From Chondrosia reniformis (lineage: Eukaryota > Porifera > Demospongiae > Chondrillida > Chondrillidae), in NCBI GenBank assembly GCA_947172415.1, contig OX359195.1:496001-560000 (forward strand): a stretch of DNA of 64,000 bases, written 5' to 3'. Positions 14,418 to 63,893 of this stretch are shown in pieces; position 1 is the first letter of the stretch, and every line of letters begins with the position of its first letter. The notes beneath the pieces are model-generated. The model did no database searches, was not told the origin of the DNA, and worked only from the letters and a program-made list of their open reading frames with translations. A program made the translations under genes and the position numbers.

Positions 14418-14425
14418 ATACTGAC

Positions 14426-26156: not shown

Positions 26157-26684
26157 CTGTACACAACACATTCATATAGAAATACAATATTATGGAACTA
26201 GTAACTTTTGATTCCAATTTGCTAAATTTTAAAACTTAAGGTATTACAAATTTGTGACTTTTTAAACAAGCAATTAAGTTTCATAACAATACAAAATAAC
26301 ATTGGGAGATCTATACAAACAAAATGCACACAGAAGTATATACATATAGAGGCAGACCCTATAATTAGTGCACTGGAGAATCAGGTAAATTAGAAAACAG
26401 GCTGATTGTCATACACTGCAATGTCTGGTTAGTGATAGTTGTGGGGATAACAGCTGCCAATCCTCAAATAAGGTCAAAGGTTAGGGGTGTTCTGGGTGTT
26501 GAAGAACCCCCTCTAAATTTGAGTTTGTACGTATTAGCAATACTCAACTCTTGGCATATTACGTATTATCCAAAAACCTCATAACCTTCCCCTATATAAC
26601 TTGGCACTCCCCTTATAACTTTCAACCCATTGATTCAATACTAGGCAAGCTACAAGCAGTAACGCTCAACTGCTACCAACTCAC

Positions 26685-36237: not shown

Positions 36238-36812
36238 GGTACCCCTGTGATACCCTTGTGATACCCTTGTGACACCCTTGTGACACCCTTGTGACACCCT
36301 TGTGATACCCTTGTGATACCCTTGTGATACCCTTGTGATACCCTTGTGACACCCTTGTGACACCCTTGTGACACCCTTGTGACACCCCTGTGACACCCTT
36401 GTGATATCCTTATGACACCCTTGTGACACCCTTGTGACACCCTTGTGATACCCTTGTGACACCCTTGTGACACCCTTGTGGTACCCTTGTGATACCCTTG
36501 TGACACCCTTGTGACACCCTTGTGATACCCCTGTGACACCCTTGTGATACCCTTGTGACACCCTTGTGACACCCTTGTGACACCCTTGTGATACCCTTGT
36601 GACACCCTTGTGACACCCTTGTGACACCCTTGTGACACCCCTGTGACACCCTTGTGACACCCCTGTGACACCCTTGTGATATCCTTGTGACACCCTTGTG
36701 ACACCCTTGTGACACCCTTGTGATACCCTTGTGACACCCTTGTGGTACCCTTGTGACACCCTTGTGACACCCTTGTGACACCCTTGTGACACCCTTGTGA
36801 CACCCTTGTGAC
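36238..36812. repeat. 11-bp minisatellite TGTGAYACCCT, expanded in unit B
   Basis: About 52 copies with C/T states in a different order from unit A and a few new variants (GATATCC, GGTACCC). Confidence 0.95.
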
Positions 36813-38227: not shown

Positions 38228-38312
38228 ACACATCACTTCTGTGTTTGGGTGCACCATCCCTACATCATGCATATATCCATGGTGTTCCCCAACACAGAAG
38301 TGATCGATGTGT
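38228..38312. other. 85-nt imperfect hairpin, unit B
   Basis: Same fold as at 12015-12099, with CACAGAAGTGATCGATGTGT in the right arm improving the pairing by one G-C in place of G-U. Confidence 0.35.
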
Positions 38313-38733
38313 ATATGGATAAGTCACTTAAATTTCAGTATGCTATTTTTGTATAGTTACTGTATTTCTCAGGATCACTGGCTTCTTTCGATACTTTTTC
38401 CAGATGTGCTATTCATTGTTGCAACACTGGCCATCCCTACTTCTAATTTCATTTTTATATATACACCTATGATCATCTAACAGACTCATAAACTAGCAGA
38501 TTATATGAGCATTTATAAAGGTCTTTCTTTAGATCTTACAGTGATTGATATCGATGTGTTTCTTGGAGGTGCAAAAGGCAGAATGATTTGACAATACTTT
38601 CCCTCCTACTGTCACCTACTCAAAACATGCAAATATACTCAAGTGTTTACTGTATTATAACTTCTGAATCAATCTATATTACTACAGTTTATACAAAGTA
38701 CGTATGAGTATGATTGGCCAGTTTCATTCCTTC

Positions 38734-39072
38734 CTATGACAAAAAAGTTTCTATTTCTCTTGCAAACCCCTTGTTCATGCTGGTAGTGTTAGGGGCAGTC
38801 ATAAGTGCAGAAGCAGCTGATTGAAGCGTCTCTACAGCTGGATCATTACGAAGACACTGATATATACAACAGAGTGTTAGCATCATCCACACTCAGTACA
38901 CTATCCATTTGTTGACACTGTCCTGCACTTATGACTTTTCCTCGCTCCAGATCAAAACGTATAGCTTTTGCATCACAGTATTTGATATGGCTGTTCTTGC
39001 TCTGGTCCAAGAAGTCTATTACTTCTGGAGGAGTTCTCTCCCTAGCTGGTCTTCTCTGAGGAGGGATCTGTT
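38734..39072 (-). CDS. Two exons of the unrecognised C-terminal gene fragment, copy B
   Basis: Equivalent of 12526-12864, with the same PPEVIDFLDQ and FAREIETFLS segments and stop. The proline-rich exon upstream (about 39,200-39,265) has one more NPPNQP unit than in A. The donor between the two exons is again unresolved. Confidence 0.4.
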
Positions 39073-39924
39073 CTATATACAGTGTATATTACAATTATAC
39101 TAGTACATCGTATGCATACTCATATGCAAAATTTGTTAGACCATAAAATGAACATTTTCTGTATCTATTGGACTCAGTTATATAAAAGAAAGTGACTTAC
39201 GTGGAGGATTGGGCTGGTTTGGTGGATTGGGCTGGTTTGGTGGATTGGGCTGGTTTGGTGGATTCAGCGGAATGTCTAGCGTTAGGAGAAAATAATTAAG
39301 ACTAAATTTTGAGAATACAACCATATAAATTTAGGCAAATTAAAAAGCTCTTACGCTCAGAGGACCTGATCAACCTGAAGTCATGATTGTGAATGTGATG
39401 AATTAAAATGGAAGCATGGAAGAGACTTACTGCCAAATCATTATTATAATAACCTTTTCTCTGTATAGAATGTATTGTCGATTGGAAGTATGTCAGTGGA
39501 CTGGCTACCCAGTGGATATGGGGATGAAGATCTGTAGTTTCTTTAACATTAATTTGTACTTATACAGCAGTGTATTCAGCTTAATCTATATTTCATAAAA
39601 AGATTGATTATCTTCAGGCAACTAATTGACCACCAGTGGTCCATCCACTGAGATACAATTACCTCAACAATGTTCCATTCATGCTTTCCTCTTACACTAA
39701 ATATTAGACTAAGTCTCTATTCCAACACTAATTAGTGATCTTTGTTAGATCAAGCTGATAAAATTTAATCTAAGACTCATTTCCAGTGGGAGGGGACGTG
39801 TTAACCATTTGGTCGCTGGCCACCATCAGCCACAGGAAAGAATTTACCAAATATTTAGCGAGTCTACAGCCTACACTTGACTCATAATGGTATTCATAGC
39901 TATGGTCTTATGACTCTGCTGCAT

Positions 39925-40643
39925 ACCAAGGCCACCTTACGGAACACTAACGTATACACTAACATTTGCAATGTGGTATTACTTATCTTTGGGATGGTAC
40001 ATCCTTCGACTTTTGAGCGTTTAAAAATGCAGTTGGTTTTTGGTCCTTTGTCAAACGTTTCGACCCTGGGGGTCTTCCTCAGTGACTGATGGTTGAGTGG
40101 AAGAATTGCCTCTATTTATAGAGGATTTTCCCGCCATTTCCACTTCCTGTCATGTGACCCTCAGCAGGATGAGAAAAACAGGAAGTATGAATATTAAATC
40201 GTCTCCAGGCTTGATGTAACACAATGCCTTGATCTAAATTCATTCTCACCTGTCTCTTCTGGATCCTGATGGCTTCTTTGACCCTTCTCCTTTGCCAGTG
40301 GGTTTCCCTGTCTGTAATCTTGGCCTTGTCCCAAGCAATTGAGTGGCCAGTCTTGAGGGAGTGTACAGCTATACCGTTGTTCACATCCCCCATCCTGACT
40401 GCTCGCTTGTATTCTGCCAATCCCACTTTCAGGGTCCTTCCAGTTTCACCAATGTAGACTGCAGAACACTCAGAGCAAGGAATTAGGTAAACTACACCCT
40501 TGATATCCATAGGTGGTTGTGGCTGTTTTGGGTTGGATAAAACGGTTCTCAGTGATCTCTGTTTGGAGAAAATGGTTTGGATACCCATTTTCTTACAGCT
40601 TCTTACTGGTATTACTTGTATTTGTGATCTACCATTTCCGTAC
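39925..40643 (-). mobile_element. 5'-truncated Penelope-like retroelement, unit B
   Basis: Same 719-bp insertion with the same boundaries as in unit A, including the GIY-YIG coding end (open from about 40,643 to 40,112). The hammerhead-like motif is near 40,057-40,082. Confidence 0.75.
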
Positions 40644-40651
40644 ATACTGAC

Positions 40652-40944
40652 CTACGAATTCACTCTTGAGAAGGTCTGCTTCTGGTCTACAATTTCGGTC
40701 TACTAGTGTGTCAAACAGAGTTTGAACTGTTCTCGGCTTATCTCCGGTATCGTTGCCTCTTCGAAGCCATTGCTTAAGCATGTCTTTCATACGATCTTTT
40801 GGTCTATTCCAGTTGTCAGAAATGTTATCCAACGTATTAATGTGAAATCCAAGTTCTATACCGATCTCTTCCCATTTGCCGGGTACTTGATCGATAATGC
40901 ATCTTTGAAGGATGGCCAGGTGATTGTTTTGGTTCAGTTCAGTC
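40652..40944 (-). CDS. Death-domain exon, copy B (partial gene)
   Basis: Same exon as 14426-14724 but 6 bp shorter, giving GKWEEIGIELGF, which is the more typical death-domain spacing. Copy A therefore carries the derived two-residue insertion. Splice sites are retained and the retroelement lies 8 bp into the next intron. Confidence 0.7.
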
Positions 40945-41773
40945 CTGTAGTATAGGATCAGGAGCTTTAATTCGCAAAAGAAGTGAACTAATTTTTAAAT
41001 TACATAGACTAATTATACATATGCATACAAGTACGGTATGATCTATTATCAGACCTTTAGGGGTCCAAGTTTGGGATCTAGTCAGTCGTAAAAAGAAAAT
41101 TATAATCTAACTCACTCCATTCAGGCAGCTAAGAATTTCCTCCTTTTACGATCAGCCGTTGAATGATAAATCACACGGGTGAGTGTATCGATGCTAGCAG
41201 AAATTATCGATTTTCATATTGCATGTAGATTATCGGTTGCTTGATACCAATTCGCCCTTTTACTTAAAAATTCCGCTCACGGGTATGGAAAATGAAAAAC
41301 ATGCCGCAGGTTCCATAGCATGAAGCTTAAATTTTAACTTTCTAAACCACATTGTACGTAGGTTAATTTCAAAAGATACATGTCATTGTAATTTTAATTT
41401 GGAAGGGTATAAAATTGGAAAACTAGTACTAGTTTTTTTCAGTTCAAAAGGAGTGTCATGCTTGCAATAATATAATATTATTTGAACCTGAGATTTGGTT
41501 CTGTGGCCCATCATCATCTAGCAGATGGTGGTTCTTACCTAACATTCAGAGCATGGTGTATTATAATGGGTTAACAGCAAATGCATTAATCCAATTCCAA
41601 AATTCAAAATTCCCCAGCATGTCCCCTTCACCACAAGAACAAAATTAAATGAATCATTATTATAAACAAACTACAGTTACTAACTCTAACAAAGGTTTAG
41701 ATACACTACAAACTATTCTGTGTTATAAACTATATAGTTTCAAGTTCTAATCTTTATTATAACATGTTGTGGT

Positions 41774-42621
41774 TCACATATGTGTGGCTATGGCTCTGCA
41801 CACAAGAGCTGTGGACTGCAGTGTTGCTATCTCTTGTCGCTTGTCATCATCTACAGGTTCAGTTTGCTCACCAAGGAACAAGGTAGATTGAGATGTAGTC
41901 TTGTCAGAACCAGCATGGTCTGATACTCCCTTTACAATCAGGAAATCTTTCTTAGTCAATGTTCCTGGCAGATCACGTTCTTTTTTTTGATGTAAACAGT
42001 GTGCTATGCCCCACCCTTCCATTTCAATGCCAACCAGTTCCCTGCTTCCACGAAGGTCTTTCGCGACTTTTTCATTCTTGATTACCAGTGTTCCAGACAG
42101 AATACAGTGAGCCTTTTTAACCTTTATAACCGGACTGTTGTCCTTTTCCTCACAATTCAACACCCTTTGACTCCATTTGCTACTCATTTCATGTGCAACT
42201 TCATTGGCAATAAGTTTATCCTCAAGTTTTCCTCCACTAATATCTACCAGCGAGTTAGAAATGAGTACATAGCCACGACAGATTTCATCTGAAGAACATC
42301 CGCAACATCCAACACAGAATATCATCTCAAGAGGCCATTCCTTCATTTTAGCTTCTTTCAATATTTTATCAACCGCGTCATCTGCACTCTTACCCCCATA
42401 CTGGTAGCTGCACTTCATATGAATGCCTTGAACGTCGCCTATCTCAATCAAATCATAATCAAAGCTGCTTCTCGGGTTGTCTCTGTAATCCTCAGTAAAT
42501 TTTGTCTTCTCTTTCAAAGTGGGCTCCTTATGATAGCTGTAATCTTTATCATCTTTTTCTTTAAAAAAGTGCCTCACGGTCTTAAATTCCATATCATTTG
42601 CAGTCAAAAGGACAAATTTTA
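41774..42621 (-). CDS. Nucleoside phosphorylase/nucleosidase-fold (PNP_UDP) protein, terminal exon, copy B
   Basis: Open from the acceptor at 42621 to a TGA for 281 residues. The fold landmarks are the same as in copy A (LLTANDMEFKTVRHFF, GCCGCSS, GIEMEGWGIAH, KGVSDHAGSDKT). About 40 substitutions and three in-frame residue losses separate it from A. They cluster between residues 70 and 230 and leave the binding and catalytic motifs untouched. DNA on either side is about 99 percent identical. The pattern suggests gene conversion from another paralogue or diversifying selection. Confidence 0.7.
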
Positions 42622-44282
42622 CTATATAAGTATATAAATATGTATATATATATAATTATATAACAATATAGGCATGTGTTAGATCATACGGACACTATAT
42701 ATACTAGAAGATGGATCAAGCGACAGACTAAAATACATATACAACATCAATTATATGTCAAAGTTTTCTTCTAAAATAAGCAAGAAACCAACTTCTTATA
42801 CATTTAGCAAACTTGATAGTATGTCTGGAAACATAATGTGCTAGCAAAAAATATCTCCAAATTAAAATGACTAAATGCTCTGGGGGACCTCTTCGGGACC
42901 CTGCCAGTGTCTTTATTATACTAATCCTTTTTAAATATCAAGCAGTGATTACCTCCCAGTCAACCATAAGTTTAAGAAATCATAATTAAAAGAACCATAG
43001 ATAGCTTGTTATTCTACCAAGCAACCTATTGGCATGTACGGAATGCACCCAGACAAACTGTCCTACAAGCATACTGGCTTCGCACAATGTATTAATAACT
43101 AATAAGCCTGCCCAAGCAGTGGGAAGATGGCCACATCATAAACTGTTAAGTTTAAGCATCTATAAAGCCACCCATATAATAACTGATACATAACTACAGC
43201 GAACCCATAATGAAGAAAATGTGAATGATAGTCCTGGTAATTAGGTTAATTAGCATGATCTAGGTAAGACAGTATGCAAATCAAGGTCTCAGTGCAAGAA
43301 CATTTCATTTGAATTTATGCTATGTACGTACCTTATGTACTGTGTATATTATATAGGTAGGTATGGGTAGCTATAATTTCAATATTGTAACAGAGACTAA
43401 CTCCCAAGGCTCACTATCATGCTATCCGTATACATGTATAGGCATTTTGATCAAAGACTCAACTGGTCTCAAAATTGAATGTAGGGGACAGTAAATGTTT
43501 TGAATGTTAAAATTCATAGTGAATAGAGTATAGCTAAATGAATATCTGAATTGTAGTTTCTTTTTTGTTTTTGCACAGGAAGTTACATGAAATTAAAGCA
43601 TCTAGGTATGAAAAGTATTTATCTTATTATATCTGTTAGTGTAGCTATAATACCTACCTCATGATCATGAGTATAATTATCCCCCTTGAACAAAAAGGCT
43701 GGGTAAATACATACACCCAGCACCTTAACCCCATAAAAAATGGGAATTGCTATATATCTAATCATATTAATTAATGGGAATTGCTATCTAATCATATTCA
43801 TTAAGTAGCACTAAAGTGTATTCATTAAGTGAGTACAGCTTGAAGGCAGTCCTACCTTCCAGGGGTTCAATGTTTTGTAAACAATTATTACAGAAACAGT
43901 ATTCAATGTATAATTCAAATATCACAACTGGCAAAGAGCTGTTGACTAATTCTAATTATATTTGAAGAGATGTTCAATACCTTTAATAAGGGTGGTGGGG
44001 TTCCTGCCATGTCTTAACCAATATAGCAGCGTTGCTGTAATAATACACTGTTCAACTCAATTAAACTGTTATAAAATACTTTGCGTTTTGACTATTGGCG
44101 GGAAAGTCTACATCCACTGCTCCAGATCAACATAATGGAGATGGATACCAAAGCTCTGAGAAACGATTGGTTCCCAGACGCATGGAACAGAGTACAGGTT
44201 GATTATACATCCAACTAGGTGTTTATACCTTTGGGCTTCCTCAAATACGTCAGACTCAGTTATATTAAAGAAACTGACTTAC
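42622..44282. other. Region upstream of the PNP exon, unit B
   Basis: Equivalent of 16,411-18,300 with a 230-bp deletion near 44,007. It retains the E2F-like site near 44,095 and the possible plus-strand first exon. No firm gene. Confidence 0.35.
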
Positions 44283-50270: not shown

Positions 50271-51539
50271 ACAATAGGACAAAATCAACCGGACTACACC
50301 AGCATAAAGTGACCAGGAACTGCCAAGCTCATAGCTGTAAATCCATGACCAGGAACAATTAACCAGAACAAACTGACAAACTTAAGTTGATGAACGTAAC
50401 ATCTGAAATAGTCCACGCAAACTGTAGGAAAATATATAATATATACAACTGAATAATGTACTCGTAAAATGTAAACATGGCAAACCTTTATAACAATTGC
50501 AAGAACTTGGGAATTAATTCTTCAGTTGTGAAATTTCAGAAGATGAAATTAGGGACTGCATGCCAGCTGAATGTTGCAAATCCACATTTGGGACATTCAG
50601 GTCAAATCATACCAAATGAAAAGCTTGCAAAACCTGTGGAATGTATGAATATAATACAACTGAATAATGTACATATATAACATGTCAAACCTTCAAAAGA
50701 TGAAGATCTTGTGGCTGGTGCTTTCTGTTCTGAAGTAATATCTCAGTTCAGAAGTTAACATTGCTCCATTTCTTTGCTGAATATTCTGATTCAGAATGTC
50801 TTTTTTGCAATAAAAGTTTGCAATATAAGTTGAAGTATGAAGAATGTTATTTTAAATTCACACAGAAATTGAAGTGATTCACAGTCATCCATGTTTTCTA
50901 CCAATAATTATGCTGAATATTCTGAATGTCATAAGACATTAAAATGCAAAAAGCCAATCTTGCTGAATCTTTATAAATGCAAGTTACTGAGTGTCTTTAT
51001 GACACAAATGCCAATTTCTTGAGTAAATGGTTGCAAGCAAAAGGCCAATATTGAATGTCTCAAGTATAAATTATAATGCATATTAAGTTTTTTTACCAGT
51101 GAATTGTACTCTGCATGCGTAGATCACATTAAAATCAAGAAATACAACGGTAATATCAATGTATAAAAATAACACATCAAATAAATAATCTGCAAAGACT
51201 GTACAGTGAAGGTACTTGAGCCAATTAGCACAATTACTATACAGAGAACATGCATGGATACAAAATTAAAGACTGTATAAGTGTACAACTTGTGTGCTGG
51301 TAAATGGTGGCCCATTTCATGTTCAGTTATAGTGCAGATATTAAGGGAGTCATTTGGAGTCATTTGGTTAAGATTCCAATCACTGTGCAAGGACTAGCAG
51401 ACATGCCTCTTCTCCATCTACATACGCAGGTCTGATAACTCTTGATAATCAGAATCATCTAACCCTAGTCTTCTACAGTTTATCCTGCAAAGTCTTACTT
51501 ACTATTCCAATGGCCTCTGCATGTGTTTAATGTGCTTTC
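50271..51539. other. Non-coding spacer, unit B
   Basis: Nearly identical to 23,076-24,344. No gene seen. Confidence 0.4.
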
Positions 51540-51965
51540 CACTCCCCCACTACACCACTCCCCCACTACACCACTCCCCCACTACACCACTCCCCCACTA
51601 CACCACTCCCCCACTACACCACTCCCCCACTACACCACTCCCCCACTACACCACTCCCCCACTACACCACTCCCCCACTACACCACTCCCCCACTACACC
51701 ACTCCCCCACTACACCACTCCCCCACTACACCACTCCCCCACTACACCACTCCCCCACTACACCACTCCCCCACTACACCACTCCCCCACTACACCACTC
51801 CCCCACTACACCACTCCCCCACTACACCACTCCCCCACTACACCACTCCCCCACTACACCACTCCCCCACTACACCACTCCCCCACTACACCACTCCCCC
51901 ACTACACCACTCCCTCACTACACCACTCCCCCACTACACCACTCCCCCACTACACCACTCCCTCA
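51540..51965. repeat. 16-bp minisatellite, about 27 copies, unit B
   Basis: Same unit and the same right-end CCCTCA variants as unit A. The ATCA variant seen in A is absent, so the contraction removed the left or middle portion. Confidence 0.97.
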
Positions 51966-52179
51966 CTACACTACCATTCAATGTACATAACCATATGGTT
52001 GTACATGTACAGTAACCATAGCAACACACACTAATAAGAAAAGATAAGTGACATTATCAAACATTCCTCTTCAAGACAAACTGTGTAAAACATCAAAGTG
52101 GTTCATTATAACAAGCCCTAATGACCAGAGCTGATAAAGAAGCACTCATATATGTATTGTATATTGTACTCTTATTAAC

Positions 52180-52260
52180 CTGAGGCAGTTGCAAGATCTG
52201 TTCCTCTTCTGTCGTGAGCCCTTTCTGTTTCTTCTTATTCTTAGCAAGCACTCCTTCCAT
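52180..52260 (-). CDS. Possible first exon at the unit boundary, copy B
   Basis: Identical to the exon at 25257-25337 and again directly at the junction with the next unit. Confidence 0.35.
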
Positions 52261-52837
52261 AACAGAAGTTTTTTGAGCAATCACATTGCAAAAGTACAAA
52301 AACAGAATTTGTTGATATTGTCGAATGCTGACATAGCAATTGTATTGTAAATGGCAACAAAACAGTTTAGCTAAGTAACAATCAAAAGTCAAGTCAAGTC
52401 AAGTCAAGTCTGTATGTTGCCATTCACTTGGCATGTGATGATGTGTTTATGCAATTTCCATGCATAGTGCATCATGATACTCTCACTCTATATACATATA
52501 GTGCTATACTATATATATGCTAACATGGTGTCTCAGAATATCTAACAATATACATGCACCTACGTATATCTCTCAAGTAACTGTAATCAGCTCTATTTCA
52601 CAATTAGTATGTCATAATTTTTTCACAATTTCAAATTTATTCCCAAACTGCATACAGTCAATTAAACAATACATAACAAAATTAATCTCAAATTTTGTTA
52701 CAAAGAAGTCAACTTTAATTTCAAATGAATCTTGAATGTTTCTGGCATGCAATTCCCTTCAGATTAACTTCATCACTGGGCATTCAGAAGTTCCTTTAAT
52801 TCCCATCCATTTTTATTAGTCCATAACTCTAAAAGAA

Positions 52838-53079
52838 TTAAACATTTTCTGTCATCCCCTTCTTCATTAAAGTTAAGAACTCTCTAAAATCTGGATGTTC
52901 CCAAGTGCCCAGAGTTTTAGCAAGGGGTTCAAGCTTTAGGTGGATCTCAGTTAGCTCATTGTGCTCCTCAGGAGACATGAGTGGGCAGGAGTGGATCTCA
53001 GTTTTGACAGTTAAGTCAGCCAACACAGGCATAACTTGATCTCTCAAATGACTACTACTCTCTCCCCCAATCACCACAC
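52838..53079 (-). CDS. Terminal exon of the death-domain gene, copy C
   Basis: Same open frame as copy B (25915-26156). The partner death-domain exon at 53570-53854 is broken. Confidence 0.45.
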
Positions 53080-53569
53080 CTGTACACAACACATTCATAT
53101 AGAAATACAATATTATGGAACTAGTAACTTTTGATTCCAATTTGCTAAATTTTAAAACTTAAGGTATTACAAATTTGTGAGTTTTTAAACAAGCAATTAA
53201 GTTTCATAACAATATTGGAAGTATATACATATAGAGGCAGACCCTATAATTAGTGCACTGGAGAATCAGGTAAATTAGAAAACAGGCTGATTGTCATACA
53301 CTGCAATGTCTGGTTAGTGATAGTTGTGGGGATAACAGCTGCCAATCCTCAAATAAGGTCAAAGGTTAGGGGTGTTCTGGGTGTTGAAGCACCCCCTCTA
53401 AATTTGAGTTTGTACGTATTAGCAATACTCAACTCTTGGCATATTACGTATTATCCAAAAGCCTCATAACCTTCCCCCATATAACTTGGCACTCCCCTTA
53501 TAACTTTCAACCCATTGATTCAATACTAAGCAAGCTACAAGCAGTAACGCTCAACTGATACCAACTCAC

Positions 53570-53854
53570 TTGGACTACATGAAACTGGTGTTATCTTTTG
53601 CCTTACATCTTCCTTGTCAATGATTGGGTTCAGGTGGACCTGCAGAAGATAATCTGGCCCTTCTGCAGAATATACAAGTGGGGCTCACTTCCACCACCAC
53701 CTTGCCACCATCAATTGCAATCCAAGCCTTGATGACCTTGAGAAGGTTATATGCCAAGTTACGGGACATGGACACTTCCAGCAGTATGGCTGTATTCTAC
53801 TGGCCAAGAAGAATGGCAAGTTCCTTCCATTTAAATATTGGAGTATATATGAAT
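53570..53854 (-). pseudogene. Death-domain exon, broken copy C
   Basis: Carries the same 4-bp insertion and the same TAG as copy B, showing that B and C descend from one already broken copy. Confidence 0.6.
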
Positions 53855-54220
53855 CTGTAGGAAAAAAACAATATATTACTGACTGAGTACAGTGATACCA
53901 AGCTAAGTATGACTATGGTGCACATTTAGGTACCTTCAGTCGCCATTTTTGTAATCGCTTAGCCCTATAAGGTCGGGGAAATCCCTTTGCCTAATGGGAA
54001 AATCCCTTTGCTCACTATAGCTATAATTGGTAGTTTAGGTCGGTCGCCGTATTAATAAAGGAGTAAAACAAAATTTCTACTGACGTCCTCGACTCTGTTT
54101 TAATCACACATAAACAGATGCAATTATTTGTTCTTTATATTTTTCCTTGAATGTAACATTTTCACAAAATATATTAATTCAAGCTTCCATGGAAACGCGA
54201 ACCAATTTCGTCGTATAATA

Positions 54221-54370
54221 CACTGCAAGAAAAGAACTAGTTTGCAAGCATGGAAACTGCTATGCTTTACAAGCAAAGCCAAACATTTGCAATTTTGAAA
54301 ACTACATGTTTGATGAAATGCACACTTTGGAAAAGTTACTGAATTTGCAAAGGTTTTCTGTAGTTTGCAT
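54221..54370. repeat. Left terminal inverted repeat and subterminal repeats of the CACTA element
   Basis: The 13-bp terminal repeat is followed by at least four TTTGCA motifs within 150 bp. In plant relatives such motifs bind the element's accessory protein; by analogy they may do so here. Confidence 0.7.
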
Positions 54371-54731
54371 TATTTACAATAGTTTCAACCACAAGGTTAG
54401 CTGGATTATGAATATAATTAAAGATAGGTCTCAAATAACGCCCCTTTCCTAATGAATTACATAATATACATTCTACACCTCTATGCAGCTGGCAGGTAAT
54501 TGACCTGTTTATACTGACGTTACACTTCACTTTTATTGCGCAACTGAATTAAAATGGAGTTACAATGATATTCTCAGTTACAGTTTCAGTAAAAAAACAG
54601 TCTAAATATAAACCAAAGTTAGTGATTAGTGTTCTTGCAGGGATCTACATTGTGAAAGAAAATGGATGTTAAATGGTAATTTAGACTTACCTATCAATAT
54701 TCAGCTAGCTACTTAGCTATATACCTCTAAT
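54371..54731. other. Left internal spacer of the CACTA element
   Basis: No coding sequence beyond the 3' end of the minus-strand gene. Confidence 0.4.
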
Positions 54732-56141
54732 TTACAAGTTTCTTATAATCCACTCTGCCGTTCCCACTGGAGGAGTTGATGTTGAATTTTCCCCTAAAAC
54801 TCTGGATATCTTTGGTGCCCTATATGCCTTCTTCTTTAGACTGTCTTCATACCTTTTATCAAGTTCTGACAGGAATGTATTGGCCTCTATTATGTAGGTA
54901 AGATTTATGTTGAATGTGAATATAGCTGTTATTGCAGTTCTGTATGAGTTACCTTCTGATCTCCAATGGTGCTTGTGTAACACTATTGAAATTTCACCTG
55001 TTTCTGGATCTTCAAGGTCAGATTCTTCAGTCATGTGTTCTGCCTTGAAGTCCAGAAACTTCTCTCGCTCATCATCTTTCACCTCTGATGCTCTACTTTC
55101 CAGTTTCTATAGGTATATATAGGTTTAGGTAAACATAATAGCATATATCCTTTTTTAGAAATAGTTACCCTTTGTCTTCTCTGTCTTCTTTTAGCAATCC
55201 TGAGACGAAGATTTTGTTCTTCCATTGTTTCCCCACTCCTTTTTTCAAGTCTCTTAAGATTCTCAAATAACCTTTTTACTGCAACTTAATTAAATAAGAC
55301 AGGATATAGGAAGTTAATTATTTTACATATAATGATTGCAGGTGAGGGAGTACTTACGATTGACTAGATCCATTGTTTCCTCTGGCATATAACATTTGAC
55401 TTCATCTATGATTTTCTTTTTTGTTTGTACATTTTCAGGATATAAGAAACTATTGACAAATAATGTATAGGAAAAGATTGTTGAAGGAATATACATGTCT
55501 GCGCTTAAGATTTATACCTGTATGCATAACCATTATTCTACTTTTACCTTTTTTCAGTTATAAACTTCTTTTCATCTGCTAAGTCATCATGCACTCTCCG
55601 AACTGCTTTCTATTATTATGTAAAGGCATATTAAAGGTTAGTAATGTAGCATTCACACTTGAATATATACCCATAGATATGGGCTTCATGCACTAACAGT
55701 AAGTTTTCCTGTTACTCTTTTAGGGCGTTTCGGAGTACTTGTAACGGGGGCTGGATTGATATTATTGGTAGAGGAATCAGTAGATGTGTTCATAGGCTGT
55801 TCCTCCAGTTTACTTAAACACTCATTTACTGACTTTTCAAATTTTTCCATCCTACCCTCCATCCTTATCATACTTGAACTTAACTGTTTCAGAACTGTAT
55901 AGGTAATTATGTTGTATATACTTACTATATTTTCTAGCCTTATGTGATCTACAGTACTTACCAGTTGTTATTTCATTCATTTGCTGTTGGACAGTGTTGT
56001 CATCATCAGAAAATGACTCCAAGACTATTCAGGTGTAGAATATATTTCATATAAGTTCAATTGGTAAGTTGCATATACATGATACGTACTCCTCTCTGGA
56101 TCCTCAAAAACATATCTTGGATCATCATTGAATTCTACCAT
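54732..56141 (-). CDS. CACTA accessory gene, seven exons, 316 residues
   Basis: Exons 56141-56090, 56024-55962, 55894-55698, 55609-55548, 55449-55358, 55278-55169 and 55106-54732 join in phase with GT-AG boundaries. The product starts MVEFNDDPRYVFEDPER, has a coiled-coil-like part (SMIRMEGRMEKFEKSVNECL), a basic linker (TPKRPKRVTGK), a helical stretch (KAVRRVHDDLADEKKF; PENVQTKKKIIDEVKCYM), a very basic segment (RLRIAKRRQRRQR) and an acidic-to-aromatic C-terminus with LHKHHWRSEGNSYRTA. I cannot name the domain. By position, divergent from the transposase, and by its basic residues, it may be the DNA-binding partner that CACTA elements usually encode. That role is inference. Confidence 0.7.
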
Positions 56142-56447
56142 TCTAGACTTCTGCTATAGTTCTTCTTGACAGCTATAGTGCTAGAGAGCTTTCATGGATT
56201 TATCAAATTCCCTCCAAAATTAATAGTATTCATTGGTATCTTAGTGATAGTTTACGTCATTAGGCATGAACTCATTTCATGACCATATATAAAGGGCCAA
56301 TCAATAAGAGAGTTCTCTGTCACCTTATTTGAAGAGCCAATGAAATCCTGACTAGTCAGAGTGTCACATGATATTTGGTAGCAAGCACATGGTGAATCTA
56401 TATATAAGAGCTGGCATTTTCAGAACCCTTCAACCCTCAATGTGAAC
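56142..56447. promoter_or_regulatory. Bidirectional promoter of the CACTA element
   Basis: Only 306 bp separate the two start codons. TATATAAGAG lies about 50 bp before the transposase ATG, and another CATATATAAAGG lies further upstream. Confidence 0.5.
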
Positions 56448-59400
56448 ATGGATGTTGAACGTCAGTCTTATGTTTTCTGCCCTCACTGTAACACCTCTTT
56501 GGCTAGAGGTACTTACTTTAGGCATAAAAAGATCTTCTATGACCTAAAAGAGAAGACATGGTCTAAGGAAATAGGTATATACTAAATGTTGTACTGATTT
56601 TTCTTTTTAAATAGTATAATATTTCTAGACATTGACTTATTTTTTAGGTAAAGTCAGGAAGGAAGAATTACCTGAACCACAAGGTAATATCATGGCTATT
56701 TCATTGCTTTATATATGTTAACATTCACTCTTTCAATTTCTTTGTTGTAGTTGAAGGTACTGATGGTCCTTCTTGTGATTTTGATATTGTATCTGCAAAT
56801 GAACCAAGTGATATAAGCCAGTCAATGGTATGTGAATGTCAATGGCTTCAGAATACTTCTGTTTTTTGTGACTTTGCAATTTGCATATTTGTCTACTTGT
56901 ATATAGGATACATCAGCCACATTGGCTCGAGAGGATCAGCAATCCTTCCAAGCTGAAACTAATGTTGACCAGCCAAATAATGATATTCAGATGCATGTAT
57001 GTGCATACATAGTATATACTTGCATGATATATGTTAATTGCATATCCTTGCATGCATGTTGTATTGGGTTCTGCCTGTGCAAAGGCTATGTATGTAGGAT
57101 TGCAGGTTCCGTCATGGATTAACTATTACTGCTTTTTACATTTATAGTTTACACCAGCCACAGCTGTCCTTGATGCACAAGCATTGTCAGGATTTGAGCA
57201 ATCCAATTTGTTTGACTCATTTAACTGTGATTTAGAGGTGACTACATGATAATATAGTGTCTGCATGTATCTAAATGTGCGACTATTATCCACAGTTTTA
57301 ATATTTAATTGCAGGATTGTGCAACTGAAATATCAGAACAGACTAGAGAAAAAGCAAATATCCAGGAACTACACGAAGTAAATAATTTATATAATTTGAA
57401 TTCTGTCTTGTCTTCTATTCTTATGATTAAAATTTTCATTGCTTTTTCAGTGTGACTCAGAGGAAGAATTCCCTAGTGAATCTGAGGATGAAGACGAAGT
57501 TAATGTTGTGTCTGAAGGTGAAGAAGAACAGAATATGATTGAAGACTTTTCTGAAAGAATGGAAAATATAGAAATCAAAGATGATGAAGGGAAGTTACTT
57601 TTTCTTTATGCTTATTTTTTATTGGGCTTTCAAACTATTGCAAAGCTATCTAATGCCACTTTAGTGCTTATTCTGCTGTTCATTGTTACGTTTTTTGAAG
57701 CTGTCTTAAAATTGTTCCCAAACCAAGCCATGTCTGCTTTAGTTAGGAAGCTTCCTAAAACATACTACCAGACAAAGAAATTAGTTGCCCTTAAAGATGA
57801 CTTTGAAAAGTATATATATTGTAAAAGGTGTGCATCAATCTATAAATTTCAGGAACTCATATCTGGAGTAGATAAATCTTTTGCTAAGCGCCAAATATTT
57901 TGCAAGTATGTTGCCTTTCCTAACCATCCCCACTCTGGAAAACGTAGACCATGTAATTATCCACTGTTTAAGCCCTATAGGACATCTGCTGGTCAAACTA
58001 TCTTTTATCCCAAGAATATATTTTGTTATAAAAAGATTAAATCGTCTTTAGAAACAATTCTTATGAGACAGGGTAATTTTGAAAAATGTCAGAAATGGCG
58101 TTCTAACATTAACATTACCCATTGTGATGACCTTAATGATTTTTATGATGGTAACATATGGAAGAAATTTCAAGAGGTCAAATCACTTCCCTTTTTGAGC
58201 AATAGTCAAAATTTTGCTTTCATGTTGAACATAGACTTTTTCCAACCATTTGGACATACCCCTTATTCAGTTGGTGCCATATACCTTTCCCTTCAAAACC
58301 TGCCTAGGGAGGAAAGATTCAAACCAGAAAATATTTTACTGGTGGGTATTATACCTGGGCCTAAGGAACCTGCTACACTTAATTTTATCTTACAACCATT
58401 AATTGAAGAATTGCTGGTATTTTGGAAGGATGGTATTGAATTGAAAACCTATTCAGGGCAAATTTTTGCTAGAGCTGCTCTCTTGTGCGTAGCCTGTGAT
58501 TCACCAGCTGCTAGAAAAGTTTCAGGTTTTGTGAATTTTAATGCCTACAGGGGGTGTCTAAAGTGCTTAAAAACCTTTCCATATATAGCTGACATACATA
58601 AGCCAAATTATGGGGGATTTGATTCTGATAATTGGCTAAAAAGGGATCGTAAACTCCTTTTGTCCTATGCTGATAAATGGAAAAATTGCTGTAATAGGGC
58701 TGAACAAAAAAAGCTTGAACACCAATATGGTGTGAAGTACTCAGTACTATTTGAATTGCCTTATTTTGACCCTAATAGAATGGTCATTATAGACCCAATG
58801 CATAATTTGCTCTTGGGTACTGCTAAGCATATGCTAAATGTTTGGAAGGAAACAGGGAAAATAAAACCGAATGATATGGAATTAATGCAGGAAAAGGTTG
58901 ATAGTTTTGTAGGTCCCTCTGATGTTGGAAGAATACCCCTAAAAATGGCATCTGGTTTCTCTTCCTTTACAGCAGATCAATGGAAAAATTGGACTTTGTT
59001 GTATTCTCTTGCATGTTTAAAACCAATCTTACCTTTACGAGATTTTAGATGCTGGTTAAATTTTGTTAAAGCATGTCATATCCTTTGCTCTAGGAAAATT
59101 AACCTTAGCAAAGCTGCTGAGGCTCATGACTGGTTGACCAAATTTTGTAAAGAAGCCGAGTCCTTGTACTCAACTGCCTTTTTGACACCAAATATGCATT
59201 TGCATCTCCATCTACTGGAATGTATAAATGATTTTGGGCCTATCTATAGCTTTTGGCTGTTTGCATTTGAACGATTAAATGGCTTACTTGGTGGTTATCC
59301 AACAAATAATAGAAGCATAGAAGTCCAATTGATGAGAAAATTTTGCATGCTAGATATATCTGTTAATTCTTCTTTGTCACAAGAATTCAGTGTTCTATTA

Positions 59401-59970
59401 AAACCTGGAAGTTTAAGAGGTTCTCTTTCTGCTTGCTACAAACCTGTTGGCACTGACGACATAGAAGGAAGGTTAGTTATGCCTTTGCCTCCAGTACTTG
59501 AATCTTCACTTGATGACAGGATGAAAGCCAGTATAATTGAGGTTTTGCATCAGGATCAAGTTGATGTAGGAATTTTGTGCTCAAAATGTAAGGCATTAAA
59601 AATCAATGGTTGTGTTGTTGGCTCTTTTGAAGGCAGGTACCATGCAAATAGCCATGTGCTTGCAAATATAGGTACCACTGTTAAACTATGTAGAATAAAT
59701 TATTTTGTAAAGGTAACAGTTAAAGTATCATTGCATGAAACGCCAGTACAACACTTATGGTTTGCTAATGTAAATTTCTATATTGCTGATGAATTTAAGT
59801 GGTGGCTGGGAAAGCCTTCAGAAATTTGGAGTACCTCTTTAGAAATTTACTCTTCCTTTGTTCCTATTCAGGAGATTTCCTCAAGGGTTGTGTGGCTTCA
59901 AACTGACATTGACTTTGGAAGCAGAAGGGGTCTTGATAATGTATTAGTCATAAGCCCAGTCACATTCTAG
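56448..59970 (+). CDS. CACTA transposase (Tnp2-type), seven exons, 1,000 residues
   Basis: Exons 56448-56574, 56648-56683, 56751-56827, 56907-56996, 57148-57237, 57315-57377 and 57451-59970 join in phase. The N-terminus has a zinc-finger-like CPHC followed by FRHKK (residues 11-28). An acidic region follows, and then a large last exon with the animal CACTA order: a hydrophobic helix pair; LPKTYYQTKKLV; a CKRC knuckle; NIDFFQPFGHTPYSVG (about residue 420); IIPGPKEP; ACDSPAARKVSGF (about 510); DPMHNLLLG (about 609); and FERLNGLLG (about 767). The acidic residues in NID, CDSP and the later motifs are candidate catalytic residues of an RNase H-like fold. The enzyme would cut the element ends. No disruption was seen. 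Confidence 0.88.
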
Positions 59971-60118
59971 GTATTTTATGAATGCTAAATTTTACTATTG
60001 CCTCAATTTTGAAAGAATCTATAGTTGGATTGGTCATGAATATTCAATGGCCACTGTACTTGTATATTTTTTTACTGAGCTGTGATGAAAAGGTATATAA
60101 GCCATGTAATACTGTACA

Positions 60119-60152
60119 TGTGTGCTGCTTGCACATATGCAAGCAGCACACA
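60119..60152 (+). other. Perfect 15-bp hairpin in the transposase 3' UTR
   Basis: TGTGTGCTGCTTGCA, loop CATA, then the exact inverse. It lies between the stop codon and the hammerhead motif, 40 nt before the latter. A structure this stable could stall exonucleases or aid the fold of the ribozyme. Confidence 0.75.
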
Positions 60153-60190
60153 ATAGCAGTGTGGCTATTGCTTTACTGAGCTCACAGTAC

Positions 60191-60244
60191 ATCACACTGA
60201 TGAGAGCCAAGAAGCTCGAAACAGCTTATACAGCTGTCTGTGGT
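60191..60244 (+). ncRNA. Type I hammerhead ribozyme in the transposase 3' UTR
   Basis: Stem I pairs ATCACA (60191-60196) with TGTGGT (60239-60244), with one G-U. CTGATGA is the first core box (60197-60203). Stem II is GAGC with GCTC around a CAAGAA loop, including the favoured G10.1-C11.1 pair. GAAA is the second box (60218-60221). Stem III is CAGCT with AGCTG around TATAC, closed by the A15.1-U16.1 pair. Cleavage is predicted after C238 (position 60238). Every conserved core base is present and all three stems are closed. It begins 221 bp after the transposase stop codon. Self-cleavage would remove the poly(A) end of the transposase mRNA. Activity is not shown by sequence alone. Confidence 0.8.
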
Positions 60245-60890
60245 TCTATAATGTAGATCCAGATGTACGTGTACATACATAATTTAAATCGTATATAATA
60301 TTTATGGTATTATGTAGTATTATAATATATATATATGTACGACATGTAATAATTTTAATTTATTAATGTTATTTGCAATTGGCCATGGTGATCATGATCA
60401 CCTAGTATGTGTATATATATATATATAACGATGGATTGTATGCATGGATTAAAAGTATGCACGAAAGTGCACACAGTTATGCAAGAAGCTATATACCATG
60501 TGCCTTTGAGCATGCTCAGAATGTATTTCCTATTTTAGATGTTCCATAAAAAGTAGTAGTATATATATAGAGTCTCAAGCTCTAAATATAAACATATTTG
60601 TACATTTTTGTCAATGATAAAGAATATAAATAGTAAATCACATGACAAGGGCATGACATTTTGGAGGGATATCATTTTTAATGAGTTATATATAGAGGAA
60701 AGGTTAAAGTTAATGTTCTGTTGTTCTGTTCCTGTATTAACTTGATGTTTACCTGTATATCAAGAAGTAAGTTAACAGTTTGACTCTTAAAGATATATAA
60801 ATGCACACATGAAACATTAGTTGGCAATTATAATAATGTTTCAGGTTGGACCTGTCAATTATGTACATTGTACCTGTTTGCCATTAAAAT

Positions 60891-60896
60891 AATAAA
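60891..60896 (+). terminator. Poly(A) signal of the transposase transcript
   Basis: AATAAA, downstream of the hammerhead and just before the hairpin repeat array. If used, the hammerhead would be inside the mature transcript. Confidence 0.4.
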
Positions 60897-60912
60897 ACAA
60901 TGACTATAAGAA

Positions 60913-61745
60913 TGTGGAGAGCCTGCTTCGGGCTGTACCAATCTAATAATCAATCTTAGAACATGGCCATGGGGAGCCTGCTTCAGGCTGTACCAATCTA
61001 ATGATCAAGCTTAGAACATGGGGAGCCTGCTTCGGGCTGTACCAATCTAAAAATCAATCTTAGAACATGGGGAGCCTGCTTCGGGCTGTACCAATCTAAT
61101 AATCAAACTTAGAACATGGGGAGCCTGCTTCGGGCTGTACCAATCTAATAATCCAACTTAGAACATGGGGAGCCTGCTTCGGGCTGTACCAATCTAATAA
61201 TCAAACTTAGAACATGGGGAGCCTGTTTCGGGCTGTACCAATCTACTAACCAAAAAATAACTTTGGACATGGGGAGCCTACTTCAGGCTGTACCAATCTA
61301 ATAATCAAGCTTAGAACATGGGGAGCCTGCTTCGGGCTGTACCAATCTAAAAATCAATCTTAGAACATGGGGAGCCTGCTTCGGGCTGTACCAATCTAAT
61401 AATCAATCTTAGAACATGGGGAGCCTGCTTCGGGCTGTACCAATCTAATAATCAATCTTAGAACATGGGGAGCCTGCTTCGGGCTGTACCAATCTAATAA
61501 TCAATCTTAGAACATGGGGAGCCTGCTTCGGGCTGTACCAATCTAATAATCAAGCTTAGAACATGGGGAGCCTGCTTCGGGCTGTACCAATCTAAAAATC
61601 AATCTTAGAACATGGGGAGCCTGCTTCGGGCTGTACCAATCTAATAATCAATCTTAGAACATGGGGAGCCTGCTTCGGGCTGTACCAATCTAATAATCAA
61701 GCTTAGAACATGGGGAGCCTGCTTCGGGCTGTACCAATCTAATCA
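60913..61745. repeat. 17-copy, 49-bp hairpin-forming minisatellite in the CACTA element
   Basis: The unit contains GGGGAGCCTGCTTCGGGCT followed by GTACCAATCTAATAATCAA and TTAGAACAT. AGCCTG and CGGGCT (or CAGGCT) form a six-pair stem with a CTT loop in almost every copy. Variants AAGCTT and TAAAAATCAATC recur every five or six units, so blocks of several units have been duplicated together. Confidence 0.92.
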
Positions 61746-61937
61746 CCTAAAAACAAACTTAATATATAGCTTAATTGAAAATAAACCATTGGACTGGCAA
61801 GCTTACATGTTTGGAGTTGTATAGCCTATAGTACTAGTCCTACAACAACCCTATCTGCATACATTGGTGTCCATGTGTCATGAATGCATGTGTACTGGTA
61901 CTGGTATTACTAATTACTCCATACAAAATTTTACAGC

Positions 61938-62702
61938 ATGGCAAATTACCATTATCCAAAAACATCAGAAGACCTCTGGAAGAAGAAAATAAGACAAAGG
62001 AGAAAACAACGTGTTAGAAGGAAGCTGAATCTTGAAAGAACCAGAAGAGTTTTTGAATATGATCCTAACCCTAGCATGCTTGTGCCGGCTGATCTGCTTA
62101 CACCCCCAAATTCTGAAAAGAAGAAACCACAGGATGCTCAGCAACAAGGTTTTACCGAGAACCATGAATTGGAAGACAACGGAGAAAGACCGAAATTGAC
62201 ATTAGTGAGACCTGAAGAGGACCCAGATGACCTACCCTATGACCATGAGAAATGGGATGCCTACTTTAGAGAAACAAATCTTCAGCGTACTTCAGATTGG
62301 ATTAAGAAATGTAAAGTATACGATACAGTAGGGAAAGGTAGAGAAGAGATAGGACACACTGACATACAGCCAAAGTCTAGTAAAATAGATACCGAGTTTC
62401 ATAAGCATGCATTAGCTGCAGAAAATGTAATTAAGGATAGGCTTAGCTTACCAGATCAGTACATAGTTAATAGGCATGTAAGTGAATTGAAAAATCTAGA
62501 AGATAGGGCAGTACATGAAATTAGGCAATATAGGGATAAGGTAGAGGAATTAGGAATAGAATTAGACACAAAAAGAAAACAATATAATACATCTAAGTTA
62601 GCAATTAGGGAGTTTTACAGGAATAAGATTTTGGAGGGAGGATGCAGGGCAGGGAGGATGGTCCTCTTAGGTGCTCAAAGTAAAGACAATAGAACTGAAT
62701 AG
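61938..62702 (+). CDS. Third CACTA frame, 254 residues, unrecognised
   Basis: The ATG at 61938 lies two bases after a good acceptor (TTTTACAG), so an upstream non-coding exon is possible. The N-terminus is strongly basic (KKKIRQRRKQRVRRKL). A mixed-charge middle has EEDPDDLPYDHEKWDAYF, and the C-terminal half is predicted helical (HVSELKNLEDRAVHEIR, YRDKVEELGIEL). I do not recognise a domain. It lies inside the element ends and on the same strand as the transposase. It could be an accessory or captured host gene. The sequence ends with a TAG and shows no frameshift. Confidence 0.6.
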   Translation: MANYHYPKTSEDLWKKKIRQRRKQRVRRKLNLERTRRVFEYDPNPSMLVPADLLTPPNSEKKKPQDAQQQGFTENHELEDNGERPKLTLVRPEEDPDDLPYDHEKWDAYFRETNLQRTSDWIKKCKVYDTVGKGREEIGHTDIQPKSSKIDTEFHKHALAAENVIKDRLSLPDQYIVNRHVSELKNLEDRAVHEIRQYRDKVEELGIELDTKRKQYNTSKLAIREFYRNKILEGGCRAGRMVLLGAQSKDNRTE

Positions 62703-63774
62703 TTTGTAAATTTCTCTTAACACTATATAACTGTGTACAGTTGTTAATTATCATCCTTATTATACATAAACCTTTCAATCCAGTGACTTTTATGCTACAT
62801 TTATACACAATAAGAAGTAAGCATAACAACATCCTTTCGAATTCCCCATGTTGGTATAATTAAAATAGTTAATTCTCTAAGTTATAAACATGTATGTTGT
62901 ATAGGTAAGAACATAAAAATAAACAAGTCAATACACCCATAATCCTGTACACTAATAATTAATTACGTATAGCTATCAGGATATAGGACTAACATTAATT
63001 GAATATACGCACTTTTTTATATGTTGATGATTGTACAGTTTGTACATAAGTTAATTATAAACACTGTATAATCGACTGTTTATATTTTCTAATGACTATA
63101 CTTCTGCTGTTCTCTCTATCAGAGTAGCTAAAATCTTAATTGTATACAGGCCTAGGACATTCTGTTCCATGTAAGTACTACGTATACTTAAGGTACTTAA
63201 TCTGCTTCTTACCTTAGCAAAGACCACTGAGGAGTCAGGCGATTCCTTCTAAGATATTATCATATGCGACTTTAAACTATCTATATAAAAACGGGAATAC
63301 CCATGAAAGATATAAGATCAATCACATCTATAAACATACATACGAACATACAATAGTTTGGTAAAACTTTTGCGTTTAACATTCACTGTAATGGCTGCCA
63401 AGCAACAACTAAGATAACTATTTATGGTGAGTTTGAACCTTTCTATGCCTTTCAACTCAAAGGGGGTAAATATTGAAATTACTAACTAAGCATAAGTGAA
63501 ACGGAATTAAGGCTGCTAAATGATAAAAATACGGCAACTTTTGCCTTTTAACAGTGATGTATAGTTATTTATCTTACCTTTTGGATTTATTTAGCCTATA
63601 TCTGTTCCACTGAAAGGCGCTGGTGCTGGAATCATTAACAACGTTGCTCTAGCCTGAGAATCCATTTTAATCGTTTAATTGGTTAATGAATATCATTATC
63701 ACTTCCACTAAGCTTCACCTCTGTGTATAGTTTATATAGGACTTTCTGAATTAATTGGTGACAAAACCACAGTA
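62703..63774. other. Right internal spacer of the CACTA element
   Basis: AT-rich and non-coding as far as I can see. Confidence 0.4.
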
Positions 63775-63893
63775 CACAAACGCTCTGCAAACCTTATGCA
63801 AACCAGCTTGTGTGTAAATGTTAGCAAACGTTCTGTAAATCAGTAGTTTGAAAAACTTGCAAACTATAGCAAATTGCCCTTTTTCTTGCAGTG
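63775..63893. repeat. Right subterminal repeats and terminal inverted repeat of the CACTA element
   Basis: Five GCAAA(C/T) motifs lie between 63,785 and 63,875 before TTTTCTTGCAGTG. Their orientation is opposite to those at the left end. Confidence 0.7.

What the first reader, a model, noticed from the sequence alone, without database searches (positions are those of the whole stretch)
60191..60244. Complete type I hammerhead ribozyme in the 3' UTR of a CACTA transposase
All core bases (CTGATGA, GAAA, A15.1-U16.1, C17) and all three stems are present in a single 54-nt stretch, 221 bp after the stop codon of an intact transposase and upstream of its AATAAA. Hammerheads are established in Penelope-like retroelements, retrozymes and satellite RNAs. 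I do not know of one described as part of a CACTA DNA transposon. Cleavage would cut the poly(A) tail off the transposase mRNA and so could limit transposition or couple it to a condition that blocks folding.
Basis: partly seen in the sequence, partly recalled or inferred. Interest (0 to 1): 0.9.

Follow-up and report, generated by a model that had tools for sequence, protein, structure and literature searches.

The report
Self-cutting RNA inside a sponge transposon
A sponge "jumping gene" of the cut-and-paste kind carries, just after its transposase gene, what looks like a complete self-cutting RNA motif that has stayed almost unchanged while the DNA around it drifted beyond recognition, which suggests that the transposon uses it to process or limit its own messenger RNA.

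Summary
Confirmed and strengthened. Window 60191-60244 holds a complete type I hammerhead (HHR): all core letters, three stems, predicted cut after C60238. None arose in 300 shuffles. It lies inside a young CACTA element, 54221-63893, with CACTG ends, Transposase_21, a 3-bp target duplication and two empty sites in the same window. The genome matches the sponge Chondrosia reniformis.

A search found 17 places, 13 of them 150-221 nt after a related transposase. Two clade members have saturated synonymous sites and unalignable UTRs, yet 59/64 HHR letters agree. Five clade copies with a full open transposase frame keep the core. Four A-type copies with broken frames carry G12A. Twelve checked flanks of more distant transposases lack it.

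Its nearest relatives found are short-stem-III HHRs of retrozyme-like repeats in the same genome (230 sites), so the transposon probably captured one and lengthened stem III. Most likely it cuts the transposase mRNA in its 3' UTR; cleavage and effect are untested, and predicted folding in longer context is mixed. The paper searches listed no HHR in a DNA transposon.

The parts
54221..63893 (+). Whole CACTA element, 9673 bp, termini CACTGCAAGAAAA...TTTTCTTGCAGTG, 3-bp target site duplication
   Evidence: two empty sites at 1873-2076 and 27236-27439 differ from the joined flanks by exactly 3 bp of length
57535..59970 (+). Transposase ORF, 811 aa, Pfam Transposase_21 (tnp2)
   Evidence: Pfam PF02992 E 3.6e-18
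60120..60151 (+). Perfect 14-bp hairpin in the 3' UTR, upstream of the ribozyme (A-type copies; arms changed in L011 and L014; not seen in B-type)
   Evidence: Sequence, fold, alignment
60177..60186 (+). Conserved upstream block UGAGCUCACA; could pair with the stem I 3' strand
   Evidence: Of 14 copies scanned: 10 of 10 letters in L009-L012, L014, L015, L016, L019, L020, L023; 9 of 10 in L021, L022; not found in L024, L025. Alternative pairing only suggestive
60191..60244 (+). Type I hammerhead ribozyme; predicted cleavage after 60238
   Evidence: found in 17 places
60463..63893 (+). 3' module shared at 95-97% with the B-type element whose transposase is only about 69% identical in DNA
60915..61743 (+). 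49-bp tandem repeat array, 16.7 copies
61938..62702 (+). Second ORF, 254 aa, no Pfam family above its cut-off; 98.8% identical to its counterpart in the B-type element

Best explanation
It is a genuine, selectively maintained type I hammerhead built into the 3' UTR of the transposase transcript of one clade of CACTA (En/Spm) DNA transposons in a sponge. It was probably captured from a resident retrozyme-like HHR and became a single-copy cis-cleaving motif through a longer stem III. When the transposase transcript passes the UTR, the RNA folds and cuts itself after C60238. This separates the coding part from the poly(A) tail and from everything downstream, which either lowers the lifetime and output of the transposase mRNA (self-restraint) or sets its 3' end. 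Shown here: structure, membership in the element, conservation. Inferred: activity, transcript extent, effect on expression, direction of capture.
For: Complete core and stems, 0 in 300 shuffles. Inside a precisely bounded element with two empty sites. Fixed sense position: 13 of 17 places have the HHR 150-221 nt after the end of a related transposase. A-type against B-type transposase: 173 fourfold sites 34% identical, pS 0.757 (saturated), pN 0.217, while the HHR with its edges is 59/64 identical (P 2.7e-22 at the fourfold identity) and the UTR on either side scores within the range of 50 shuffles. Variation falls where a type I HHR tolerates it (recalled): loop III varies in sequence and length (18 nt longer in L024), while core, loop II and the bases beside stem I vary little. 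The 5 clade copies with a full open transposase frame (window, C9:5616799, C9:2186478, C7:6917998, C13:4068643), at 5 different 3' junctions, all have an intact core. Kinship with retrozyme-like HHRs: a model of the CACTA HHR scores 5 of the 6 tested at 41-55 bits, and L035, L041 and L050 share stem I CCACA/UGUGG and the following UUC.
Against: No cleavage data and no RNA data. No compensatory change within the family. Rfam hits are well below gathering. Predicted folding is mixed: in 40-80 nt of flank stem I has probability 0.0 in both A-type copies tested (L009, L010) but 0.55-0.65 in B-type L016 and 0.79 in L022; in the segment from the upstream block to the HHR end it is 0.01 for L010, L016 and L019. 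Tertiary contacts are not in that energy model. One duplicated group of copies has G12A, which should kill catalysis (recalled, not tested). A sixth clade copy, on C4, has no stop over its match but is shifted near its end and has A15.1 changed. The checked more distant transposases of the genome do without an HHR (0 of 12).
Confidence: 0.6

Rival explanations
1. The ribozyme processes a long transcript that covers both the transposase and the second ORF, separating the two messages; its main product is the downstream RNA.
For: Both ORFs are on one strand with the HHR between them; the 3' module with ORF2 is shared nearly unchanged between two divergent elements, so cassettes were exchanged at a junction about 210 nt after the HHR.
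Against: ATTAAA/AATAAA at 60448, 60883 and 60891 and an 829-bp tandem array lie between HHR and ORF2; ORF2 starts 1.7 kb downstream; an RNA made by HHR cleavage has a 5'-OH and no cap (recalled).
Confidence: 0.14
2. The sequence is conserved as DNA (for example a transposase or host-factor binding site) or for another RNA function, and cleavage is incidental or lost.
For: No compensatory change within the family; a second conserved block lies just upstream; some longer-context folds favour another pairing.
Against: The conserved letters are those of an HHR core with its stems; it is kin to retrozyme-like HHRs of which 4 of 5 scanned exceed the Rfam Hammerhead_1 cut-off and whose stems differ while still pairing; loop III is free to vary.
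Confidence: 0.16
3. The HHR is a passive remnant of a retrozyme that landed in the UTR and was recently spread between CACTA lineages by recombination, without function.
For: The genome holds 230 related HHR-like sites and the CACTA lineages do exchange modules.
Against: Similarity of the two elements to the retrozyme-like loci compared is at the HHR, apart from three short weak matches elsewhere; the HHR sits between unalignable flanks in A and B, so a tiny exchange would have to be repeated in several lineages (L015, L016, L021, L022); the five full-frame clade copies all keep it.
Confidence: 0.1

Closest known systems
Metazoan non-LTR retrozymes with type I HHR (PMC7229834, passages including part of the abstract seen)
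   Same: Type I HHR in an animal mobile element; the nearest sequence relatives found for this HHR are such repeats in the same genome (spacing 352-363 bp in several arrays); shared stem I CCACA/UGUGG and GAAACAG...CUGUC.
   Different: There the HHR belongs to a small non-coding tandem RNA that becomes a circle. Here it is single, inside a 9.7-kb DNA transposon, with a longer stem III and another stem II than the repeats of this genome.
Penelope-like elements and Terminons with HHRs (PMC7761336 and PMC6431247, passages seen)
   Same: HHR as a conserved part of an autonomous mobile element.
   Different: Those are retroelements, with minimal HHR variants lacking helix III or the tertiary contacts; here a cut-and-paste DNA element with one full HHR in a 3' UTR.
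Discontinuous HHR in the 3' UTR of mammalian Clec2 genes (PMC6155905, passage seen)
   Same: HHR in the 3' UTR of a protein-coding gene.
   Different: An atypical type III HHR with a helix I of 150-1500 nt in host genes; here continuous type I in a transposase gene.
Schistosoma mansoni W-elements (PMC8490949, passages seen)
   Same: Repeats with functional HHR sequences; one W-element (W16.2) has a 317-bp piece like the DNA transposon Curupira-1.
   Different: Satellite-like elements; the authors found no complete transposase ORF. The passages seen do not say that the Curupira-like piece carries an HHR.
CACTA (En/Spm) transposons
   Same: CACTG ends, 3-bp target duplication, Transposase_21.
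   Different: The papers listed in my searches do not describe an HHR in them; 12 checked 3' flanks of more distant transposases of this genome have none.

Membership tests
Hammerhead ribozyme, type I | Conserved core CUGANGA, GAA, A15.1-U16.1, H17 | tested here: met
   11 of 17 genomic places keep all of it
Hammerhead ribozyme, type I | Three stems, open end at stem I | tested here: met
   6, 4 and 6 bp
Hammerhead ribozyme, type I | Score above the Rfam family cut-off | tested here: not met
   No gathering match; best HH9 24.5 of 52 bits in the window, 28.3 in L016. The retrozyme-like L033, L035, L041, L050 do exceed RF00163
Hammerhead ribozyme, type I | Covarying stems | tested here: inconclusive
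   0 of 16 pairs with changes on both sides within the family; differing but paired stems only against other HHR families in the genome, not scored statistically
Hammerhead ribozyme, type I | Tertiary contact between the stem I bulge and loop II | not testable with these tools
   Bases 60186-60190, loop II and 60245-60249 are mostly conserved and resemble the Schistosoma HHR as recalled
Hammerhead ribozyme, type I | Self-cleavage | not testable with these tools
   Bench test needed
CACTA (En/Spm) transposon | CACTR terminal inverted repeats | tested here: met
CACTA (En/Spm) transposon | 3-bp target site duplication | tested here: met
   ATA, TAA, TAA in 3 of 3 elements whose both ends were examined; empty sites
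CACTA (En/Spm) transposon | Transposase_21 (tnp2) protein | tested here: met
Retrozyme | Short tandem units (about 150-450 bp), each with an HHR | tested here: not met
   One HHR in the 9.7-kb element and in the whole window
Penelope-like element | Reverse transcriptase with GIY-YIG and pLTRs | not tested
   Only the two ORFs of at least 150 aa in the element were scanned, one a Transposase_21, the other with no family above cut-off

The most novel reading that the evidence does not exclude
A DNA transposon has domesticated a retrozyme hammerhead as a built-in switch on its own transposase mRNA. The conserved upstream block UGAGCUCACA and the hammerhead form two mutually exclusive folds, one inactive (block paired with UGUGGUUC) and one cleaving, so that a condition or a bound protein, perhaps the transposase itself, decides whether the message keeps its tail.
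Probability: 0.14. Interest if true: 0.92.

Novelty: new variant of a known kind. Interest (0 to 1): 0.75.

Why it matters
In the papers seen, natural hammerheads of eukaryotic mobile elements belong to retroelements, satellite-like repeats and RNA circles. A cut-and-paste DNA transposon that keeps one in its transposase UTR across saturated divergence is a case I did not find in those searches, and it makes an old question, what genomic hammerheads are for, testable with one in vitro cleavage, one RNA-seq mapping and one reporter assay. It would also be a case of post-transcriptional control written into a DNA transposon by a catalytic RNA captured from another mobile element.

Tried and rejected
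Chance match: rejected (0 in 300 shuffles). Nested retrozyme insertion: blastn of the two elements against L033, L035, L041, L042, L049, L050, L055 gave matches at the HHR only, apart from three short weak ones (29, 42 and 39 bases, to L035, L035 and L042) elsewhere. HHR as a general feature of these transposases: not supported in this genome. 12 of the 38 match rows with 35-49% amino-acid identity were fetched (the 12 have 36-45%; 1.5 kb each; each has a stop in the longest frame and 808-937 nt after it). 0 of 12 have an HHR by Rfam or the family model. A scan for core plus stem II found only one antisense partial match, in L080. Their terminal repeats were not examined.

G12A copies as evidence that elements transposed without the ribozyme: weakened; their 3' junctions and 300-bp flanks are the same (86-98% identical), so duplication of one insertion explains them. 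That flank is itself repetitive, so this is likely, not proven.

Covariation within the family: none. Upstream block as an anti-ribozyme strand: conserved, but its duplex with the HHR is reached by 13-15% of permuted blocks and 8-9% of random 10-mers against the whole HHR, and by 6% and 2% against the 3' strand alone; and the block pairing is predicted to win in L010, L016 and L019 but not in L015 or L022, and only slightly in L023. So only suggestive. A scan of viral contigs for the HHR core found nothing, which says little. The comparisons show about 190 differences peculiar to L012/L013 that I did not resolve and that may come from a rearranged 3' part; I did not use them. One search was too broad to be informative: 69 papers, 10 listed, none of those 10 with the term hammerhead ribozyme; 59 not seen.

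Full report
WHAT IS THERE. The 54 bases at 60191-60244 (+) are a complete type I hammerhead: AUCACA-CUGAUGA-GAGC(CAAGAA)GCUC-GAA-ACAGCU(UAUAC)AGCUGU-C|UGUGGU. The MFE fold of the 54-mer is this structure (-13.8 kcal/mol, z -1.31, 24 of 200 shuffles at least as low). A scan that demands the core and three stems finds only this site on both strands of the window and none in 300 dinucleotide shuffles. Rfam gives nothing at gathering. In a 9-kb stretch it gives HH9 24.5 bits, E 0.015, and RAGATH-1-hammerhead 25.7 bits, E 0.74.

WHERE IT IS. Nine contig lengths shown by the tools (C3, C5, C7, C8, C9, C10, C12, C13, C14) agree with the chromosome table of the kidney sponge Chondrosia reniformis, odChoReni1.1 (PMC12181767, start of abstract and two passages seen), so the window is very probably chr 7, 496001-560000. 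The HHR is inside a CACTA element at 54221-63893: ends CACTGCAAGAAAA / TTTTCTTGCAGTG, Transposase_21 ORF of 811 aa, a second ORF of 254 aa downstream, and a 49-bp array of 16.7 copies at 60915-61743. The window contains a repeated unit whose two other copies are empty sites (1873-2076 and 27236-27439); joined flanks match them at 97.6-98.6% with exactly 3 extra bases in the filled site. Two more elements examined (C13 B-type, C9 A-type) also have 3-bp duplications, TAA and TAA, in other flanks. So the HHR is part of a mobile DNA unit that inserted recently.

OTHER COPIES. A DNA search with 60180-60260 finds 17 places. Upstream, 13 of 17 carry the C-terminal part of a related transposase ending about 150-221 nt before the HHR (L009-L018, L020-L022). 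L019 belongs to an element with transposase remnants further upstream, L025 has the second ORF just after the HHR, and L023 and L024 show no coding match in the 3 kb held. CUGAUGA is intact in 17 of 17. All core letters are intact in 11 of 17 (L009, L010, L015-L019, L021-L024); G12A in L011-L014 and L025, which also lacks C17; A15.1 changed in L020. Stems are weakened in some of the 11 (L015, L021, L023). Of the clade copies, five have a transposase frame without stops over the full match (window, C9:5616799, C9:2186478, C7:6917998, C13:4068643), and these five have an intact core and five different 3' flanks. A sixth, on C4, has no stop over its shorter match but is shifted near its end and has A15.1U. 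The four A-type copies with G12A have broken frames and share one 3' junction.

CONSERVATION. A-type (window) against B-type (L078) transposase: 64% amino acids over 807 codons, pN 0.217, pS 0.757 (saturated), fourfold sites 34% identical (173 sites). The HHR with its edges is 59/64 identical, P 2.7e-22 at that fourfold identity. The UTR before it (215 and 148 nt) and after it (210 and 255 nt) scores within the range of 50 shuffles. The 3' module from 60463 on is 95-97% identical between the two elements, so modules are exchanged, but the HHR is separated from that module by about 210 unalignable bases. Most of the change sits in loop III. Within the family no pair changes on both sides, so the support is from conservation and position, not covariation.

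RELATIVES. The same genome has many other HHR cores: 1330 matches to a loose core pattern against 189 for the reversed control, 51 matches over the Hammerhead_1 cut-off among the 73 candidates scored, and 230 sites of the form CTGATGA...CGAAACAGCTGTC against 0 in the control, of which the first 100 are listed, several in arrays spaced 352-363 bp. Metazoan retrozymes are short tandem repeats with type I HHRs (PMC7229834, passages seen). Loci L035, L041 and L050 share the stem I CCACA/UGUGG and the following UUC with the CACTA HHR. The CACTA family model scores five of the six tested (L033, L035, L041, L049, L050) at 41-55 bits, and does not list L055. The main difference is stem III: ACAGCUGU there, ACAGCU-UAUAC-AGCUGU here. 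In amphibians a short helix III goes with low activity of single motifs and better cleavage as dimers (PMC7229834). A longer stem III is what a single-copy cis-cleaving HHR would need. That the transposon captured it, rather than the reverse, is inference from copy number.

LIMITS OF DISTRIBUTION. 12 of the 38 more distant transposase rows (35-49% amino-acid identity; the 12 have 36-45%) were checked downstream; none has an HHR. So in this genome the HHR looks like a feature of one clade. Other sponge genomes could not be searched.

MECHANISM. Shown: structure, place, conservation. Inferred: the transposase transcript runs past the HHR to ATTAAA at 60448 or AATAAA at 60891 (none between stop and HHR; in the B-type element the first such signals are also beyond the HHR), cleaves after 60238, and loses its tail. 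Either this limits transposase, or the cut plus the 14-bp hairpin at 60120-60151 (A-type only) makes a defined 3' end. The block UGAGCUCACA at 60177-60186 is conserved across lineages although its distance to the core changes from 10 to 16-23 nt. It can pair with UGUGGUUC. In the segment from the block to the HHR end this pairing is predicted to beat stem I in A-type L010 (0.78 against 0.01), B-type L016 (0.64 against 0.01) and L019 (0.53 against 0.01), not in L015 (0.19 against 0.43), with neither favoured in L022 (0.05 against 0.04) and little in L023 (0.18 against 0.10). With 40-80 nt of flank stem I is at 0.0 in A-type L009 and L010 but 0.55-0.65 in L016 and 0.79 in L022. Chance gives such a duplex in 2-15% of trials. 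So a switch is only a possibility, and the same calculation is a caution against assuming efficient cleavage, above all in the A-type copies.

PRINT. Searches for hammerhead with DNA transposon and transposase (5 papers), CACTA (8), EnSpm (0), terminal inverted repeats (3), Porifera (0), and self-cleaving ribozyme with DNA transposon (21, 20 listed) gave no listing that describes an HHR in a DNA transposon (titles, counts and abstract starts seen). A broader search was uninformative. Passages of PMC6431247, PMC7761336, PMC6155905 and PMC12477314 tie HHRs to Penelope-like elements, Terminons, retrozymes and Clec2 UTRs. PMC8490949 reports functional HHRs in schistosome W-elements and a 317-bp DNA-transposon-like piece in one of them, with no complete transposase ORF (passages). 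PMC10085705 has no word beginning transpos. The library is open-access only, so absence in print is not proven.

VERDICT. The functional claim stays open.

Noticed in passing
window 1-54220: Much of the window is made of two or three copies of a roughly 26-27 kb unit at 92-99.9% identity, with smaller nested repeats (e.g. 10267-17794 with 36499-44012; 24616-26291 with 51539-53214), and the CACTA element starts exactly where the block 53218-54220 ends.
   Followed up: partly
genome G000, e.g. C4:3837454-3838563, C6:4724366-4724753, C5:3589520-3589915: 230 sites of short-stem-III hammerhead type, several in arrays of 352-363 bp spacing like retrozymes, in a sponge genome; no paper of the library holds both hammerhead ribozyme and Porifera.
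   Followed up: partly
genome G000, e.g. L026, L027, L030, L040, L045: A further family CTGATGAAGACC....GGTCGAAAC has an HHR-like core and stem II; I did not work out whether stems I and III close.
   Followed up: no
window 60463-63893 and L078:5826-9380: Two CACTA elements with transposases only 64% identical in protein share a 3.4-kb 3' module at 95-97%: cassette exchange between transposon lineages.
   Followed up: partly
window 54735-55967, minus strand: Minus-strand open stretches at the left end of the element (54735-55106, 55689-55967), and tblastx matches to the B-type element over about 54750-56640: perhaps a third, intron-containing gene.
   Followed up: no
window 61938-62702: ORF2 protein, 254 aa, basic N-terminal part, no Pfam family above cut-off; conserved in the B-type element.
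   Followed up: no
window 60915-61743: 49-bp tandem array whose unit holds AGCCTGCTTCGGGCT, an imperfect inverted repeat; possibly subterminal transposase-binding repeats as in En/Spm (recalled).
   Followed up: no
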